From Actinoallomurus sp. (lineage in GTDB: Bacteria > Actinomycetota > Actinomycetes > Streptosporangiales > Streptosporangiaceae): a stretch of DNA of 60,231 nucleotides. Position 1 is the first letter of the stretch; each line of letters starts with the position of its first letter. Shown piece by piece: positions 52,323-57,579 of this stretch. A program made the position numbers and the translations under genes. The stretch covers positions 1 to 60,231 of the forward strand of contig JAOPYG010000131.1 in assembly GCA_025964685.1 (NCBI GenBank), in the 5' to 3' direction. The notes beneath the pieces are model-generated. The model did no database searches and was not told where the DNA came from. It saw nothing but the letters and a program-made list of their open reading frames with translations.

Positions 52323-52858
52323 TCGTGTGCCCACCGGCCGCCTGCCCTCCGGGTCGCCTCCGGCAGCCGTACGGCCGCCGCCCACTCGGCGAGGATCTCC
52401 TCGATCCGGCCCAGGTCCGACTCGACCACGGCCAGGCCCGGGGTGGGGACGGTCGCGCCGAGTTCGACCAGGAGCGGGCGCAGGTGCACCTCGACGGCGA
52501 GCGCGTGCCGGGGCGAACCCATCACGAGCAACGGCAGGGCGATGACCCCGTCGAGCGAGGGCACCCGGTCCAGGAACGCCTTCAGCAGGCCGGTGTACGT
52601 GCCCTTGTACGTGGGGCTCGCGACCAGCAGGACACCGGCCGAGGTGACCCGTTCCACCGCGTCCTCCACCAGGGCGGAGGGGTGCGGGCCGAGCAGGACG
52701 GGCGCGAGCGCCGTCAGGTCGATGATCTCGGCGGTCGCCTCCGGCGCGAGCGCCCGTGCCGCCTGCGCCGCGACCGCGTGCGTCCGCGACGCCGGACGTG
52801 GGTTGCCGACCAGCACGACGACGTCCGCGCCGTACTCCGTGGAAGGTGGGGCGCTCAC
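52319..52858 (-). CDS. ssuE: NADPH-dependent FMN reductase, SsuE-like
   Basis: A 179-residue flavodoxin-like reductase: VVVLVGNPRPASRTHAVAAQ binds the FMN phosphate and VASPTYKGTYTGLLKAFLDR is the FMN-binding loop. In the ssu pathway it reduces FMN for SsuD. It overlaps ssuD by 4 nt and the second flavin reductase by 4 nt. The second reductase in the same operon suggests redundancy. Confidence 0.88.
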   Translation of the reverse strand: MSAPPSTEYGADVVVLVGNPRPASRTHAVAAQAARALAPEATAEIIDLTALAPVLLGPHPSALVEDAVERVTSAGVLLVASPTYKGTYTGLLKAFLDRVPSLDGVIALPLLVMGSPRHALAVEVHLRPLLVELGATVPTPGLAVVESDLGRIEEILAEWAAAVRLPEATRRAGGRWAHE

Positions 52859-53961
52859 GCGGCCTCCTTCAGCAGGCCGAGGCGGTTCAGCTCCGGGAGT
52901 ACGCCTTCGCCGAACCAGTACGCCTCCTCCAGATGCGGGTAGCCCGACAGGACGAACTCATCGATGCCGAGCGAGGCGTACTCCGCGATGCGTTCGGCGA
53001 CCTGGGTGTGGCTGCCGACGAGTGCGGTGCCGGCACCGCCGCGAATGAGGCCGACGCCCGCCCACAGGTTCGGGTAGATCTCCAGGTCATGGGTGGAGCC
53101 GCCGGTGCGGAAATCCTCGTGCAGCGCCCGCATCCGCGCCTGGCCGACCGACTCGCTGCGGGCCAGGCCCTCCTGGGCGGCGGCGATCTCCGCCGGGTCC
53201 AGGTCGTCGAGCAGCCGTTCGGCGGCGCTCCACGCCTCCTTGGCCGAATCGCGGGTGACGACGTGCAGCCGGATGCCGAAGCGAAGTGTCCGGCCTTCAC
53301 GCTCGGCGAGCTCGCGCATCCAGTCGATCTTCTGCTGGACCTGGATGGGTGGTTCGCCCCAGGTCAGGTACGCGTCCACGTGCTTGGCCGCCACCGGTCC
53401 CGCCGCCGGGGACGAACCTCCGAAGTAGATCTGGGGAAGCGGATCGGGTACCGCCGACACCGTCGCGCCCTCGACCTCGTAGTAGTTGCCGTTGAAGTCG
53501 TAGGGCTGCCCGCTCCACGCGCCGCGAACGATGGACAGGAACTCATCCGTACGTGCGTAGCGCTCGTCGTGGGAGAGATGGTCGCCGAAGCGCGCCTGCT
53601 CGGTGCGCTCCCCGCCGGTGACGATGTTGAGCAGGAGCCGGCCGCGGGAGAGCCGCTGGTAGGTCGCGGCCATCTGGGCCGCGAGCGTCGGGGACAGGAA
53701 GCCCGGCCGGAAGGCCACCAGGAACTTCAGCCGCTCGGTCTCGCGGGTCAGGGCGGCCGTGGTCAGCCAGGCGTCTTCGCACTGCGTCCCGGTCGGCGTG
53801 AGCACGCCCTCGAAGCCGAGCTGCTCGGCCGCGCGCGCGATCTGCGTGAGGTACTCGATGTCCGGCGGACGCTGCACCCCGCGCCGGGCGGCGCCGTGGC
53901 CACCGCCGACGAGGTTGCGGCCGTCGCCGCTCGTGGGCAGGAACCTGTGGAACTTCGTCAT
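52855..53961 (-). CDS. ssuD: FMNH2-dependent alkanesulfonate monooxygenase
   Basis: A 368-residue LLM-class TIM-barrel monooxygenase that releases sulfite and an aldehyde from alkanesulfonates. RFLPTSGDGRN at the N-terminus, ARAAEQLGFEGVLTPTGTQC, FLVAFRPGFLSPTLAAQMAA, NIVTGGERTEQARFGDHL and YFGGSSPAAGPVAA are as in SsuD, including H-x and Cys near residue 60. Between ssuA and ssuE with 4-nt overlaps. Confidence 0.92.
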   Translation of the reverse strand: MTKFHRFLPTSGDGRNLVGGGHGAARRGVQRPPDIEYLTQIARAAEQLGFEGVLTPTGTQCEDAWLTTAALTRETERLKFLVAFRPGFLSPTLAAQMAATYQRLSRGRLLLNIVTGGERTEQARFGDHLSHDERYARTDEFLSIVRGAWSGQPYDFNGNYYEVEGATVSAVPDPLPQIYFGGSSPAAGPVAAKHVDAYLTWGEPPIQVQQKIDWMRELAEREGRTLRFGIRLHVVTRDSAKEAWSAAERLLDDLDPAEIAAAQEGLARSESVGQARMRALHEDFRTGGSTHDLEIYPNLWAGVGLIRGGAGTALVGSHTQVAERIAEYASLGIDEFVLSGYPHLEEAYWFGEGVLPELNRLGLLKEAA

Positions 53962-54953
53962 GAGGACCCTCCTGGGACGGTGTCGTGGAAGCGCCGGTCG
54001 ACGAAGTCGCCGATCTTCAACCGGCCGGGAATGAGCTTCGCGTCGGAGAAGGCGTCGGCGAGCTGCTGCTCACCCGCGATCACCGTGTCGTCGACCTGGA
54101 CCGGCTTGGTGACGCGCCGGTGCGCGGCGACCTGGGCGACCGCCAAGGGCAGGCCGATCTGCGCCGACCAGGTCTTCGCCCACTGCGTTTGGTGGGTGGC
54201 GGCCCAGACCGTGGCACGGTCCAGCCGGGTCAGGTAGTCGCGGATCGCCGCGACCTTGGCCTTGTCCTTCAGCGCCTTGGCGGCGGCGACGTTGAACTGG
54301 TAGTTGGTGCCGAAGCCGTTGCCGTACACCAGGGCGCGGGCGCCGGTCTGCGCCTGGGCCTGTGCGGTGTAGGGGTCCCAGATCGACCAGGCGTCGACCC
54401 GGCCCGCGCTGAACGCCGAGAGCGCGTCGGCGGGCTGGAGGTACTGCGGCTGGATGTCGCCGAACGTGAGCCCGGCCTTCCTCAGCACGCCGAGGAGGAG
54501 CGCGTGCGCGGAGCTCCCCTTGGCCAGCGCGATCTTCTTGCCCTTGAGGTCCTGGATCGTCCGGATCGCTGACGTCTTCGGCACGAGGACGGCCTGTGCC
54601 GCCAGGTTCTGGTCGCCCGCCGCGACGATCTTGATCTTCGATCCGGCGGCGGCGGCGAAGATCGGCGGGGTGTTGCCGACCGCGCCGATGTCGATCGCGC
54701 CCGCGTTGGCGGCCTCGAGCAGCGGCGGCCCGGAGGTGAACTGCGACCAGGTGATCTTGTATTTGACGCCGGTCAGCTCGCCGGCCGCCTGGAGCAGGGC
54801 CTGTGATCCCGCCTTCTGGTCACCGACGTGGAGCGACACCTTCGTGAGGTCGACCGTGCCGTCCTTGCGGATCGCCGCCGCGCCGCCGCCGGCCGAGCCG
54901 CCGCAACTCGTGAGCAGGACGAGCGCGCCGAACAACGGGAGGAGCTTCTTCAT
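53958..54953 (-). CDS. ssuA: Aliphatic sulfonate ABC transporter substrate-binding lipoprotein
   Basis: A 331-residue lipoprotein. The signal MKKLLPLFGALVLLTSC has a lipobox with C17, followed by a type 2 solute-binding fold: KVSLHVGDQKAGSQALLQAA, ANAGAIDIGAVGNTPPIFAA and DLKGKKIALAKGSSAH are typical of SsuA/TauA. It captures sulfonates for SsuBC. Start overlaps the ssuB stop by 4 nt. Confidence 0.92.
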   Translation of the reverse strand: MKKLLPLFGALVLLTSCGGSAGGGAAAIRKDGTVDLTKVSLHVGDQKAGSQALLQAAGELTGVKYKITWSQFTSGPPLLEAANAGAIDIGAVGNTPPIFAAAAGSKIKIVAAGDQNLAAQAVLVPKTSAIRTIQDLKGKKIALAKGSSAHALLLGVLRKAGLTFGDIQPQYLQPADALSAFSAGRVDAWSIWDPYTAQAQAQTGARALVYGNGFGTNYQFNVAAAKALKDKAKVAAIRDYLTRLDRATVWAATHQTQWAKTWSAQIGLPLAVAQVAAHRRVTKPVQVDDTVIAGEQQLADAFSDAKLIPGRLKIGDFVDRRFHDTVPGGSS

Positions 54954-55684
54954 CGGTTCCCTTCCTCGACACCGAGCTGTTCGAGCAGTTCGGCGCGCAG
55001 GTGGATCAGGTCGGCGATCTGCCGGGGACGTCCGGTCTCGACGCGTGACTCGTACGCGATGCGGCCCTGGCCGAGCACGAGCACTCGGTCCGCCAGGATC
55101 AGGGCCTCGTCCACGTCGTGGGTGACGAGCAGCACGCTGGTGTGCTCGGAATGGCGTTTCCACAGGTCCAGGACAAGCCGGTGCATGGTGATCCGGGTGA
55201 GCGCGTCCAGCGCGCTGAACGGCTCGTCCAGCAACAGCAGCCCGGGCTCACGTACGAGAGCGCGGGCCAGGGAGGCGCGCTGGGCCTCGCCGCCGGACAG
55301 GGTGAGCGGCCAGGCCGTGGCGAGCGCGCTGAGCCCGACCTCCTCCAGAGCGCCGACCGCCTTCGCCCTGGGGTCAGGTCCGGTCAGGCCGAGCGCGATG
55401 TTGTCGATGACGCGCTTCCAGGGCAGCAGCCGGGGCTCCTGGAACGCGACCCCGACCGTGCCCTCGACGGTCAGCTCGCCGGTGGTGTCCCGGTCCAGTC
55501 CGGCCAGCGCGCGCAGCAGGGTGGACTTGCCCGAGCCGCTGCGGCCGAGCAGTGCGACGAACTCCCCGCGTTCGATGTCCAGGTCCAGGCCGTCGAGGAT
55601 GCGCCGCTCACCGAACGCCCTGCTCAGGCCACGGGTCCTCGCGGTGTGCGCGGCGGCTACGCGGGTTGGAAGGCTCGTCGCCAT
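54950..55684 (-). CDS. ssuB: Aliphatic sulfonate ABC transporter ATPase
   Basis: A 244-residue ATPase. Walker A GRSGSGKST, Q-loop FQEPRLLPW, signature LSGGEAQRASLARAL, Walker B LLLLDEPFSALDALTR and switch His THDVDEAL are intact. ATG 55684 would overlap the end of ssuC by 28 nt, longer than the 4-nt overlaps elsewhere, so a later start is not excluded, although none is clear. Confidence 0.92.
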   Translation of the reverse strand: MATSLPTRVAAAHTARTRGLSRAFGERRILDGLDLDIERGEFVALLGRSGSGKSTLLRALAGLDRDTTGELTVEGTVGVAFQEPRLLPWKRVIDNIALGLTGPDPRAKAVGALEEVGLSALATAWPLTLSGGEAQRASLARALVREPGLLLLDEPFSALDALTRITMHRLVLDLWKRHSEHTSVLLVTHDVDEALILADRVLVLGQGRIAYESRVETGRPRQIADLIHLRAELLEQLGVEEGNR

Positions 55685-56481
55685 GCCAGTGCCCTTCTCT
55701 CGATGAGGCGTACGAGGGCGTCGGTGATCAGCCCGAGCGCGCTGTAGACGACCAGGCCGACCACGATCACGTCGGTCCGCATGAACTCCCGCGCGTCGTT
55801 GATCATCCAGCCGAGTCCGGAGTCGGCGTTGACCTGCTCGGCGACGATGAGCGCGAGCCAGGCGACGCCGAGACTCTGCCGCAGTCCGACCAGCGTCTGC
55901 GAGAGCGCGCCGGGCAGGATGACGTGCCGGATGAGCGCGGTGCGGCTGAGCCGCAGCGCCCGGCCGGCCTCGACGAGCTTGCCGTCCACTCCGCGAATGC
56001 CGGCGAACGTGTTGAGGTACAGGGGGAACGCGACCCCGAGGGCGACCAGCGCCACCTTGGGCGTCTCGCCGATCCCGAACCACAGGATGAACAGCGGGAT
56101 CAGCCCGTAGAACGGCAGCGCCCGCAGCATCTGCATGGGCGGGTCGATGGCGTTCTCGCCGAAGCGGCTGAGCCCGGCGGCGAGTGCGAGGGCGATCGCG
56201 GCGACGGCGCCGATCGCGAAGCCTTCGACGACCCGCTGGAGCGACACCACTATCGCGTCCGGCAGGGTGCCGGCCGTGGTCAGGTCGACCGCCGTCTGAG
56301 CGATCTTGACGGGCGCGGCGATGAGCCGCGCCGACAGCAGGCCGGATGAGCTGGCGGCCTGCCAGAGGAGGAGAAGGACGATCGGGCTGATGAGCCGGAG
56401 CAGCCCGGACGCCCGTGGAACGCGGATGCGTTCGAGGGCGGTCCGGCGAGCCGGCCGCAGATCGAGGGCAGGTGAGGACAT
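55657..56481 (-). CDS. ssuC: Aliphatic sulfonate ABC transporter permease
   Basis: A 274-residue permease with six membrane helices and the EAA loop near EAGRALRLSRTALIRHVILPGA. LLRLISPIVLLLLWQAASSS is the first helix and VIVVGLVVYSALGLITDALVR the last. First gene of ssuCBADE. ATG 56481 is chosen with AAAGGG upstream; the leader in front holds a short leaderless ORF (56574-56657). Confidence 0.92.
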   Translation of the reverse strand: MSSPALDLRPARRTALERIRVPRASGLLRLISPIVLLLLWQAASSSGLLSARLIAAPVKIAQTAVDLTTAGTLPDAIVVSLQRVVEGFAIGAVAAIALALAAGLSRFGENAIDPPMQMLRALPFYGLIPLFILWFGIGETPKVALVALGVAFPLYLNTFAGIRGVDGKLVEAGRALRLSRTALIRHVILPGALSQTLVGLRQSLGVAWLALIVAEQVNADSGLGWMINDAREFMRTDVIVVGLVVYSALGLITDALVRLIERRALAWRRAFQPA

Positions 56482-56573
56482 GAGAGGAGGACCCTTTGAG
56501 TACGCGAGCGGGAGGAGAGGTGCGGAGCGGTTGGCCACTCCGGGGAAGCCGATGTCGGATCGCGGCTGGGGAC

Positions 56574-56657
56574 TCAGGCGGTCGGCGCACAGAGTGCGCT
56601 GGCCTGCCGCCGAAGGTCGACGTGCAGGCGCGTCACGAGGGGCTGACCTGTACTCAC
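56574..56657 (-). CDS. 27-residue leader peptide of the ssu operon
   Basis: A short minus-strand frame with GTG 56657 and TGA 56574-56576, ending TRLHVDLRRQASALCAPTA. This (R-x-HVDL-x-R-x-ASALC) is the pattern of actinobacterial putative leader peptides before sulfur genes. GTG 56657 sits 6 nt after the -10 GACGAT (56664-56669), so it is probably leaderless; a second GTG seven codons later gives a 20-residue version. The Cys codon TGT lies in the hairpin 56585-56599. The natural reading is cysteine-dependent control of ssu: a ribosome stalled at the Cys codon when cysteine is scarce would alter the RNA fold. The mechanism is inferred. Confidence 0.75.
   Translation of the reverse strand: MSTGQPLVTRLHVDLRRQASALCAPTA
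56585..56599. promoter_or_regulatory. Hairpin around the Cys codon of the ssu leader
   Basis: GCGCAC-TCT-GTGCGC as read on the minus strand, with the TGT Cys codon at the loop/right-arm border. It would be melted by a ribosome translating or stalled at the Cys codon. Confidence 0.5.
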
Positions 56658-56663
56658 GGGCCC

Positions 56664-56692
56664 ATCGTCCGCAACGAATCAGACAAAGTCAA
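56664..56692 (-). promoter_or_regulatory. Promoter of the ssu leader and operon
   Basis: Minus-strand -35 TTGACT (56692-56687), a 17-nt spacer and -10 GACGAT (56669-56664), the start of the leader peptide following after 6 nt. The -10 is weak (positions 2, 5 and 6 match), the -35 strong. Confidence 0.5.
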
Positions 56693-56733
56693 CCTGTTAA
56701 ATAGGGAATATGTCCGTATCGTGCGCGGACTCC

Positions 56734-56739
56734 TAGGAT
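56734..56739 (+). promoter_or_regulatory. -10 box (TAGGAT) of a leaderless SDR transcript
   Basis: TAGGAT, 6 nt before GTG 56746, divergent to the ssu promoter. Confidence 0.5.
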
Positions 56740-56745
56740 TGGCGG

Positions 56746-57579
56746 GTGACTGTCGTAGCGGTCGTCACCGGGGCGGCCAGCGGGATCGGGCGGGCGACCG
56801 CCATGGCTCTGGGCGAGCGCGGGCTGACCGTGATCTGTGCAGACGTCGACGAGGAGCGGGCGGCCGAGGCCGGCATACCGTACGGCGTCGATGTGGGCGA
56901 TCCGGCCGCGATGCAGAGGTTCGCCACATGGGTGCGTGAGGAGCACGGACCACCGGCCGTGCTCGTCAACAACGCCGGGATCGGCATCGGCGGATCGTTC
57001 TTCGACCACGACCTCGCGGACTGGCGGCGGACCATCGACGTCAACCTGATGGGCGTCGTGCACGGGTGCCTGTTCTTCGGCCCGCAGATGATCGAACGCG
57101 GGCGCGGGCACATCGTCAACGTCGCCTCGGCCGCCGCGTACACGCCCAGCATGCTGCTGCCCGCCTACGGAGCGACCAAGGCGGGCGTGCTGATGCTGAG
57201 TGAGAGCCTGCGAGCCGAACTCTCCGGCACGGGCGTCGGCGTCAGCGCGGTCTGCCCGGGCTTCATCGCCACCGGCATCTACCGCGCCGCACGGTACGCC
57301 GGCACGGACGCGGCGGAGGCGACCAGGCGCGGCGAACTCGCCGAGCGCATCGCACGCCGCTGGGCACCCGGCCCGGAGGCCGCCGCGAACGCCATCATCC
57401 GCGCCATCGAACGCGACCGCCCGCTCGTCCCGGTCACCGCCGGCGCTTGGGGGGCGTACGCGCTGTCGCGCATCTCACCGGCGGTGATGCGGAAACTGGC
57501 CCGCGCGGGCGGCGCGGACCCGTACGCACTCGCGGAACGCTTCGCCGGCATGTTCACCCACTCACGCCGCCCGCGCTAG
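56746..57579 (+). CDS. SDR family oxidoreductase
   Basis: A 277-residue SDR. TGAASGIG (residues 8-15), NNAG, catalytic Ser (VASAAAY), Tyr and Lys (YGATKAG) are present; D31-V-D after beta2 suggests NAD. The C-terminal extension with IERDRPLVPVTAGAWGAYAL is of the cyclopentanol/epimerase-like subgroup seen in mycobacteria. GTG 56746 follows the TAGGAT box. Substrate unknown. Confidence 0.88.
   Translation: MTVVAVVTGAASGIGRATAMALGERGLTVICADVDEERAAEAGIPYGVDVGDPAAMQRFATWVREEHGPPAVLVNNAGIGIGGSFFDHDLADWRRTIDVNLMGVVHGCLFFGPQMIERGRGHIVNVASAAAYTPSMLLPAYGATKAGVLMLSESLRAELSGTGVGVSAVCPGFIATGIYRAARYAGTDAAEATRRGELAERIARRWAPGPEAAANAIIRAIERDRPLVPVTAGAWGAYALSRISPAVMRKLARAGGADPYALAERFAGMFTHSRRPR

What the first reader, a model, noticed from the sequence alone, without database searches (positions are those of the whole stretch)
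56574..56692. Leaderless Cys-codon leader peptide with a hairpin around its Cys codon before the ssu operon
Between a -35/-10 pair (TTGACT, 17 nt, GACGAT) and ssuC lies a 27-codon ORF starting 6 nt after the -10, ending in the (H)VDL-x-R-x-ASALC pattern of actinobacterial putative leader peptides. Its Cys codon is at the loop edge of a perfect GCGCAC/GTGCGC stem. The ssuC start is about 90 nt farther on, with CGGAG/CTCCG able to pair. The arrangement looks like cysteine-dependent attenuation or translational control of sulfonate use. Family and coordinates are seen; the control mechanism is inferred.
Basis: partly seen in the sequence, partly recalled or inferred. Interest (0 to 1): 0.72.

Follow-up and report, generated by a model that had tools for sequence, protein, structure and literature searches.

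The report
Cysteine-codon leader peptide before ssu operon
A tiny gene ahead of a sulfonate-use operon in a soil actinomycete belongs to a widespread family of probable cysteine-sensing leader peptides, and the family members examined use almost only one of the two cysteine codons, the rare one, at the sensing position, which offers a simple laboratory test of how such sensors work.

Summary
In detail: on the minus strand, TTGACT-17-GACGAT is followed after 6 nt by GTG 56657 of a 27-codon ORF with one Cys codon, 92 nt before ssuC (ATG 56481). The peptide passes NCBIfam NF042934, 'putative leader peptide' (31.8 bits, cut-off 27), so the locus is a new member of a known kind. In ssu orthologues its core is under amino-acid-level selection (pN 0.07, pS 0.38). 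New here: the sensing Cys codon is UGU in 140 of 143 family members examined and in 58 of 58 further ones found with a model lacking that column; coding background is 11% and 14% UGU, and the Cys seven codons earlier is UGC in 84 of 91. Only one tRNA-Cys (GCA) was found, so selective charging of isoacceptors cannot explain it. In 94 non-ssu leaders, and in 48 new ones, the downstream ribosome-binding site is predicted occluded and a ribosome at the Cys codon relieves it, beyond chimeric controls. The 12 ssu leaders, this one included, show no such effect. Best reading: a cysteine-responsive leader of ssu whose output step is unresolved. Everything is computational.

The parts
56687..56692 (-). 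-35 element TTGACT
   Evidence: TTGACTTTGTC invariant in the window and four close relatives
56664..56669 (-). probable -10 element GACGAT (3 of 6 to consensus)
   Evidence: -35 to start-codon spacing shared by 35 of 143 family members; no sigma-70 consensus hit
56574..56657 (-). leader peptide ORF, 27 codons, GTG start, MSTGQPLVTRLHVDLRRQASALCAPTA
   Evidence: NF042934 31.8 bits, cut-off 27; pN 0.074, pS 0.380 in the core
56589..56591 (-). sensing Cys codon TGT (UGU)
   Evidence: TGT in 140 of 143 family members, 58 of 58 in a second set, 12 of 12 ssu leaders
56585..56599 (-). stem GCGCAC/GTGCGC around the Cys codon; probably incidental to coding
   Evidence: not enriched; in the window and four close relatives only one pair varies (A-U to G-U)
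56582..56586 (-). left arm GCCGA of a possible stem with TCGGC 56552-56548
   Evidence: invariant in 5 leaders, so no covariation evidence
56548..56552 (-). right arm TCGGC of that stem, in the intergenic part
56523..56542 (-). hairpin CGGAGTG/CGCTCCG between the leader and the ssuC Shine-Dalgarno
   Evidence: five of the seven pairs kept in all 5 leaders (two of them with a one-sided change), the two outermost broken in 1 or 2
56493..56497 (-). ssuC Shine-Dalgarno AAAGG
   Evidence: AAGG present in all 10 aligned ssu leaders
55657..56481 (-). ssuC, sulfonate ABC permease, first gene of the operon
   Evidence: best NCBIfam model SsuC, under its strict cut-off; start
54950..55636 (-). ssuB, ATP-binding subunit (start not resolved)
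53958..54950 (-). ssuA, substrate-binding protein (start not resolved)
   Evidence: TIGR01728 221.9 bits, cut-off 163.5
52855..53961 (-). ssuD-like FMNH2-dependent alkanesulfonate monooxygenase
   Evidence: best models under their cut-offs

Best explanation
The ORF is a leaderless leader peptide that makes expression of the ssu operon depend on the supply of cysteine. Steps: (1) transcription starts at or next to GTG 56657, so a 70S ribosome can start on the 5' end [inferred from spacing shared with other members]; (2) the ribosome makes the conserved stretch L-V-x-R-L-H-V-D-L-R-R-Q-A-S-A-L and reaches the UGU Cys codon [peptide-level selection shown by computation]; (3) when Cys-tRNA is scarce it pauses with UGU in the A site; UGU, read by wobble with tRNA-Cys(GCA), and the conserved nascent chain would both favour pausing [inferred; the near-invariance of UGU is shown]; (4) the paused ribosome raises expression of the operon [inferred]. 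In non-ssu members step 4 fits release of the downstream ribosome-binding site from pairing that involves the Cys-codon region [shown by computation]. In the ssu branch that release is not predicted, so step 4 is open here: another RNA arrangement, or Rho-dependent readthrough of the C-rich 92-nt gap, are both possible.
For: NF042934 match above cut-off. Peptide directly before ssuC in 13 of 80 SsuC loci, in 17 of 80 within about 2.5 kb when distal ones are counted. pN/pS 0.074/0.380 in the core against 0.507/0.680 in the N-terminal part. UGU 140 of 143 and 58 of 58. Leaderless-type spacing 35 of 143 against 1.0. Downstream of 142 leaders, families with a sulfur role make 83 matches: sulfite/nitrite reductase 22, DUF4395 14, rhodanese 14, cysteine-synthase type 9, cysteine dioxygenase 8, luciferase type 6, TauD 5, SsuC type 5 (that DUF4395 and the luciferase type belong to sulfur metabolism is my judgement). 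RBS relief at the Cys codon 1.26 against 0.11 kcal/mol in chimeras, p=1.9e-5, n=94; again 1.31 against 0.18, p=0.005, n=48. One tRNA-Cys gene found, anticodon GCA. Cysteine-responsive leaderless short ORFs with contiguous Cys codons are reported for M. smegmatis, as described in PMC9031893 and alluded to in PMC9094748 (passages read; the original, PMC8764745, is not held).
Against: For the ssu leaders no RBS release is predicted (relief 0.22 against -0.18, p=0.25, n=12; window -0.81), and the Cys segment is not complementary to the ssuC start beyond permutation (p=0.56). Only one Cys codon. -10 box poor. 63 of the 80 SsuC loci show no such peptide upstream in these scans, counting L094 (distal, E 0.006) as without. 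In 14 and 18 of 142 the downstream gene is a 2-oxoacid:ferredoxin oxidoreductase or an SDF symporter, not obviously sulfur genes; 8 precede cysteine dioxygenase type genes, which would use up cysteine. No expression data.
Confidence: 0.68

Rival explanations
1. Nascent-chain sensor: the ribosome is arrested by contacts of the conserved peptide with the exit tunnel when it meets UGU, as in arrest peptides such as TnaC or SecM (recalled), and tRNA-Cys shortage or a sulfur metabolite only tips the balance. This refines step 3 of the main reading rather than excluding it.
For: R-13, D-9 and R-6 in 143 of 143 with varied codons (partly ascertained by the profile); pN far below pS in ssu orthologues found through SsuC; conservation ends at the Cys, and 7 of the 143 and 2 of the 58 peptides end right there.
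Against: No stalling data; collecting by profile inflates amino-acid conservation; polycysteine relatives suggest that plain codon hunger suffices.
Confidence: 0.4
2. In the ssu branch the output step is transcriptional: Rho terminates in the C-rich gap when the leader is translated normally, and a ribosome paused near the end of the ORF prevents it.
For: Window gap 47% C, 22% G; in 104 family loci the gap averages 43% C, 28% G, C above G in 99; no intrinsic terminator found; Rho was proposed for mycobacterial cys leaders by Seliverstov et al. 2005 (PMC1262725, passages read).
Against: No control for the C excess of ordinary 5' regions; no rut test made.
Confidence: 0.25
3. The 5' end of the mRNA pairs with the stretch just before the ssuC Shine-Dalgarno, and ribosomes queued behind the paused one keep the 5' end covered.
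For: GUGAGU with ACUCAC or nearly so in L050-L053, GAGUAC/GUACUC in the window, GUGAAUCG/CGAUUCAC in L065 (sequences; alignment fold).
Against: Permutation test in 12 ssu leaders p=0.06-0.33 over nine settings; weak in L077 and L117; in 76 other leaders significant in 2 of 9 settings only (p 0.014, 0.015).
Confidence: 0.12
4. The ORF is not regulatory; ssu is controlled only at transcription start.
For: Operator-like sequence near the -35 (ATTCCC, either strand, in 24 of 143 upstream regions, 2.9 expected from shuffles).
Against: Codon and amino-acid selection on the ORF.
Confidence: 0.07

Closest known systems
NCBIfam NF042934 'putative leader peptide' (cis_reg_atten)
   Same: Above the curated cut-off over positions 3-19 of 19; short ORF before a sulfur operon.
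   Different: Nothing separates it from the family; RLHVDLRRQASALC is a subtype it shares with two other leaders of this genome.
Polycysteine leaderless short ORF attenuators of mycobacteria (Canestrari et al. 2020: abstract recalled, original not held; described in PMC9031893, passage read; proposed in Shell et al. 2015, PMC4633059, passages read)
   Same: Leaderless-type start, Cys codon(s) near the end of a short ORF, sulfur operon downstream; in non-ssu members of this family RBS occlusion is relieved at the Cys codon in silico.
   Different: One Cys codon instead of a run; a long conserved peptide before it; no predicted RBS release in the ssu branch.
Candidate Cys leader peptides of cys operons in Mycobacterium and P. 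acnes and of cbs in B. longum (Seliverstov et al. 2005, PMC1262725, passages read)
   Same: Actinobacterial Cys leader without a terminator.
   Different: Those have runs of Cys codons near the stop.
uORFC-8-2 motif before cysS in Rhodobacterales (PMC8632094, passage read)
   Same: Short ORF with conserved Cys codons before a cysteine gene.
   Different: Tandem codons, UGC dominant, intrinsic terminator, other phylum.
Classical attenuators (trp, his, leu)
   Same: Control codon in a short leader ORF.
   Different: No terminator found; codon bias there is explained by selective charging of isoacceptors (PMC1183508, passages read), which needs more than one isoacceptor.

Membership tests
NF042934 putative leader peptide | whole-protein score at or above the curated cut-off of 27 bits | tested here: met
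   31.8 bits, E 7.6e-8
NF042934 putative leader peptide | short ORF directly before a metabolic gene, in more than one genome | tested here: met
   13 of 80 SsuC loci with the peptide directly before ssuC
NF042936 Ms4527A family Cys-rich leader peptide | score at or above 45 bits | tested here: not met
   20.7 bits
Polycysteine leaderless attenuators | run of contiguous Cys codons | tested here: not met
   one Cys codon
Polycysteine leaderless attenuators | translation starts at the 5' end of the mRNA | tested here: inconclusive
   spacing fits and is shared by 35 of 143; no transcript map
Polycysteine leaderless attenuators | ribosome at the Cys codon frees a sequestered downstream RBS | tested here: not met
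   in silico only: window relief -0.81 kcal/mol; 12 ssu leaders p=0.25. As group averages met for 94 and 48 other members
Polycysteine leaderless attenuators | response to cysteine | not testable with these tools
   needs expression data
Classical transcription attenuator | intrinsic terminator before the first gene | tested here: not met
   0 found in 56380-56800
Nascent-chain arrest peptide | amino-acid sequence before the pause site conserved beyond its codons | tested here: met
   pN 0.050, pS 0.431 over HVDL..L in 12 ssu leaders
Nascent-chain arrest peptide | ribosome stalling shown | not testable with these tools
   needs toeprinting or profiling
Known riboswitch or RNA leader family (Rfam 15) | match at the gathering score | tested here: not met
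   0 matches in the window

The most novel reading that the evidence does not exclude
The NF042934 family is a codon-specific cysteine sensor spread through the class: the ribosome, primed by a conserved nascent chain (R-13, D-9, R-6), pauses on a nearly invariant UGU. The third base itself is the sensing element, so that the synonymous change UGU to UGC would blunt or abolish control of many sulfur operons at once. Selective charging cannot produce this, because only one tRNA-Cys was found.
Probability: 0.42. Interest if true: 0.78.

Novelty: new member of a known kind. Interest (0 to 1): 0.52.

Why it matters
The locus itself puts a sulfonate-uptake operon under such a leader. The wider point is the near-invariance of UGU (198 of 201 over two sets) beside a UGC-preferring Cys in the same peptides. 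Of my paper searches only one search had UGU as a term (12 papers listed, passages of three opened); it gave one comparable statement, the Rhodobacterales motif in which UGC dominates (PMC8632094). The key paper on the mycobacterial leaders (PMC8764745) is not held, so prior notice of the UGU bias is not excluded. If true, the question how a single Cys codon can be a sensor becomes a one-base experiment, in a family matched in 151 of 197 genomes sampled from the class.

Tried and rejected
Hairpin at the Cys codon as the switch: not enriched; native slightly less stable than synonymous randomisations, mean z +0.44, n=140. RNA structure as the cause of UGU: changing it to UGC in silico moves RBS opening by a median of -0.03 and a mean of -0.31 kcal/mol (p=0.053, n=96), and its third base pairs with the RBS window with mean probability 0.09; locally UGU is the less stable choice in 98 and the more stable in 35 of 140. 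5'-end pairing: p 0.06-0.33 in ssu. GTG 56538 as ssuC start: absent from the four aligned relatives. HVDL hairpin (columns 27-60 of A1): most pairs kept, but 32-53, 33-52 and 34-51 are each broken in one or two of five, no two-sided change; left open rather than refuted. Stability of a local hairpin as the reason for Ser AGC at -3: AGC is less stable than the best TCN in 50 and more stable in 26 of 78. Rfam: nothing. Other leader segments are also complementary to the RBS in the 76 general leaders: -54 to -38 p=0.001, -18 to -2 and +6 to +22 p=0.036 each; in ssu only -54 to -38, p=0.029, one of seven segments; not explained. In one search masking at +40 also gave relief (0.69 against 0.00, p=0.006), not repeated (p=0.78), where +6 and +12 were not significant either (p=0.09, 0.17).

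Cautions: the genome search scores only part of its first-look candidates and lists only the best matches, so counts per genome are lower bounds. Loci are not phylogenetically independent, so the p values are overstated; the spread over downstream genes and families and the second set answer part of this. Rows left out: of the 19 own-genome matches the 11 weakest (E 0.018 and above); L147 (match ends before the Cys column); of 146 rows one duplicate (L022) and two others (L028, wrongly placed on a short locus; L237, match ends before the Cys column). Searches used only leaders with a recognisable downstream start and Shine-Dalgarno 25-220 nt away. One search had one duplicate ssu row (L216 = L053) and a wrong start (L109); one search repeats it cleaned. 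L114 and the second site of L126 were found after and are not among its 12. For one search I fetched 60 of the listed matches, chosen mostly from genomes not used before; two were already seen; the loci L238-L267 that came were not used. Shuffles keep base composition only.

Full report
What is there. The minus strand holds TTGACT, a 17-nt spacer, GACGAT, six bases, GTG 56657, and a 27-codon ORF ending at 56574. The ORF scores 31.8 bits against NF042934, 'putative leader peptide' (cut-off 27), and 20.7 against the Cys-rich Ms4527A leader (cut-off 45). The next gene is an SsuC-type permease followed by ATPase, binding protein and alkanesulfonate monooxygenase. The closest SsuC relatives outside the genome are from Actinomadura sp. 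DC4 and Actinoallomurus (86-90% identity), so the window is probably from an Actinoallomurus-like organism [inference]. The ssuC start is ATG 56481: MSSPALDL and an AAGG box are conserved.

How widespread. With NF042934, 117 of 120 genomes of the family group have a match at E 0.01 (113 over the cut-off) and 19 of 296 over the phylum at E 0.001; with my own 16-column profile 151 of 197 over the class. This genome has 5 over the cut-off and weaker ones: before ssuC, and, by reading the ORFs, before a family-5 binding protein, a cysteine dioxygenase type gene, a DUF4395 gene and a HEAT-like protein. Downstream of 142 members Pfam finds sulfite/nitrite reductase 22, SDF symporter 18, DUF4395 14, rhodanese 14, 2-oxoacid:ferredoxin oxidoreductase 14, PLP enzymes of the cysteine synthase type 9, cysteine dioxygenase 8, luciferase type 6, TauD 5, SsuC-type permease 5.

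The ssu branch. Of the best 80 SsuC loci (of 357 confirmed, the scan being capped), 16 carry the peptide upstream on the same strand by pattern and one more, L114, by a local HMM. In 13 of the 17 it lies directly before ssuC. The 17 records are Actinomadura, Actinoallomurus, Thermomonospora, Spirillospora and two Streptosporangiaceae MAGs. The other 63, mostly Microbispora, Planotetraspora, Herbidospora, Nocardia, Nonomuraea and Streptosporangium, but also three Actinomadura (L085, L100, L129), do not, apart from a distal one in L094 at E 0.006. In four loci (L071, L075, L088, L127) the only peptide lies farther upstream, and L083 and L126 have a second, distal one. In L071 and L075 the gene between reads as cysteine dioxygenase type, in L083 as rhodanese type; in L088 and L127 the frame shown does not settle it (by eye).

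Selection on the peptide. In 12 ssu leaders (window and 11 loci) the core (-16 to -1 from the Cys) has pS 0.380 and pN 0.074, HVDL to L 0.431 and 0.050, while the six codons before it have 0.680 and 0.507. The orthologues were found through SsuC, though the pattern then required V, D/E, a hydrophobic residue, R/K and C. The peptide sequence, not only its RNA, is therefore maintained.

The UGU codon. In 143 distinct members the Cys codon at model position 19 is TGT in 140 and TGC in 3; long ORFs of the same loci have TGT 88, TGC 730. The Cys at -7 of the same peptides is TGC 60, TGT 6. To exclude bias I built a 16-column model without the Cys column (49 peptides), searched 197 genomes and read the next codon in 58 leaders not seen before: TGT in 58 of 58; background TGT 45, TGC 266; -7 Cys TGC 24, TGT 1. 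The three TGC cases are L144 and L146 (short Cys runs) and L230. Codon bias in E. coli attenuators is explained by selective charging of isoacceptors (PMC1183508, passages). Among 41 tRNA matches here ARAGORN names one tRNA-Cys place, anticodon GCA (genome 88% complete, one weak match not named), so that cannot apply unless a second tRNA-Cys was missed. I infer slow wobble decoding, with or without help from the nascent chain.

Leaderless start. TTGAC or TTGATT lies 34-37 nt before an in-frame ATG or GTG in 35 of 143 members, mean 1.0, maximum 5 in 200 shuffles. The window has 35. In the other 108 this strict string is absent, which proves nothing either way.

RNA. The window's 191-nt leader folds with z -2.9. 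In 94 non-ssu leaders with a clear downstream start the RBS costs 10.23 kcal/mol to open against 8.96 in chimeras (p=5.6e-5), and a ribosome at the Cys codon lowers that by 1.26 against 0.11 (p=1.9e-5); at -48 and -30 the effect is not significant (p=0.05, 0.16), at +40 it is smaller but significant (0.69 against 0.00, p=0.006). In 48 new leaders: 10.37 against 9.38 (p=0.02), relief at the Cys codon 1.31 against 0.18 (p=0.005), no significant effect elsewhere. Direct complementarity of the Cys segment to the RBS exceeds permutation in 76 leaders (0 of 1000; other segments weaker, -54 to -38 p=0.001). So a mechanism like the one reported for mycobacteria fits these members. The 12 ssu leaders do not show it (0.22 against -0.18, p=0.25; window -0.81). 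In the window and four close relatives a GGAG-type hairpin and GCCGA/TCGGC are kept, but only 1 of 45 consensus pairs has a two-sided change and the covariation term is unfavourable (+0.76), so structure there is suggested, not shown.

Verdict. A new member of a known kind of cysteine leader, here before ssu. The near-invariance of UGU is the part worth pursuing.

Noticed in passing
family loci, e.g. L025, L027, L041, L160: 14 of 142 leaders precede a 2-oxoacid:ferredoxin oxidoreductase alpha subunit gene, not obviously part of sulfur assimilation; another 18 precede SDF-family symporters.
   Followed up: partly
L003 (own genome), L151, L141, L071, L075: Leaders stand before cysteine dioxygenase type genes (8 of 142), and next to ssu in L071 and L075 (by eye); a cysteine-consuming enzyme does not fit simple induction by cysteine shortage.
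   Followed up: partly
position -3 of the leaders (window 56600-56598): Ser at -3 is encoded by AGC in 79 of 90 (23 expected) and 28 of 36; not explained by local hairpin stability.
   Followed up: partly
window 56710-56687 and upstream of other leaders: Operator-like motifs upstream of the start (either strand): ATTCCC in 24 of 143 (2.9 expected), GTGACA 30 (3.9), ACTATAG 11 (0.5); may mark a regulator acting on top of the leader.
   Followed up: no
L194 (G037:C15 94934-94990 minus and 95133-95183 plus): Two divergent leaders about 140 nt apart; by reading their first residues, one precedes a TauD-type gene and one a substrate-binding protein gene.
   Followed up: no
L005, L044, L161 (by reading): HEAT-repeat proteins (4 of 142) behind such leaders; their link to cysteine is unknown.
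   Followed up: no
window 56746-57579 plus strand: SDR-family gene divergent from the ssu leader, 88 nt between the two start codons.
   Followed up: no
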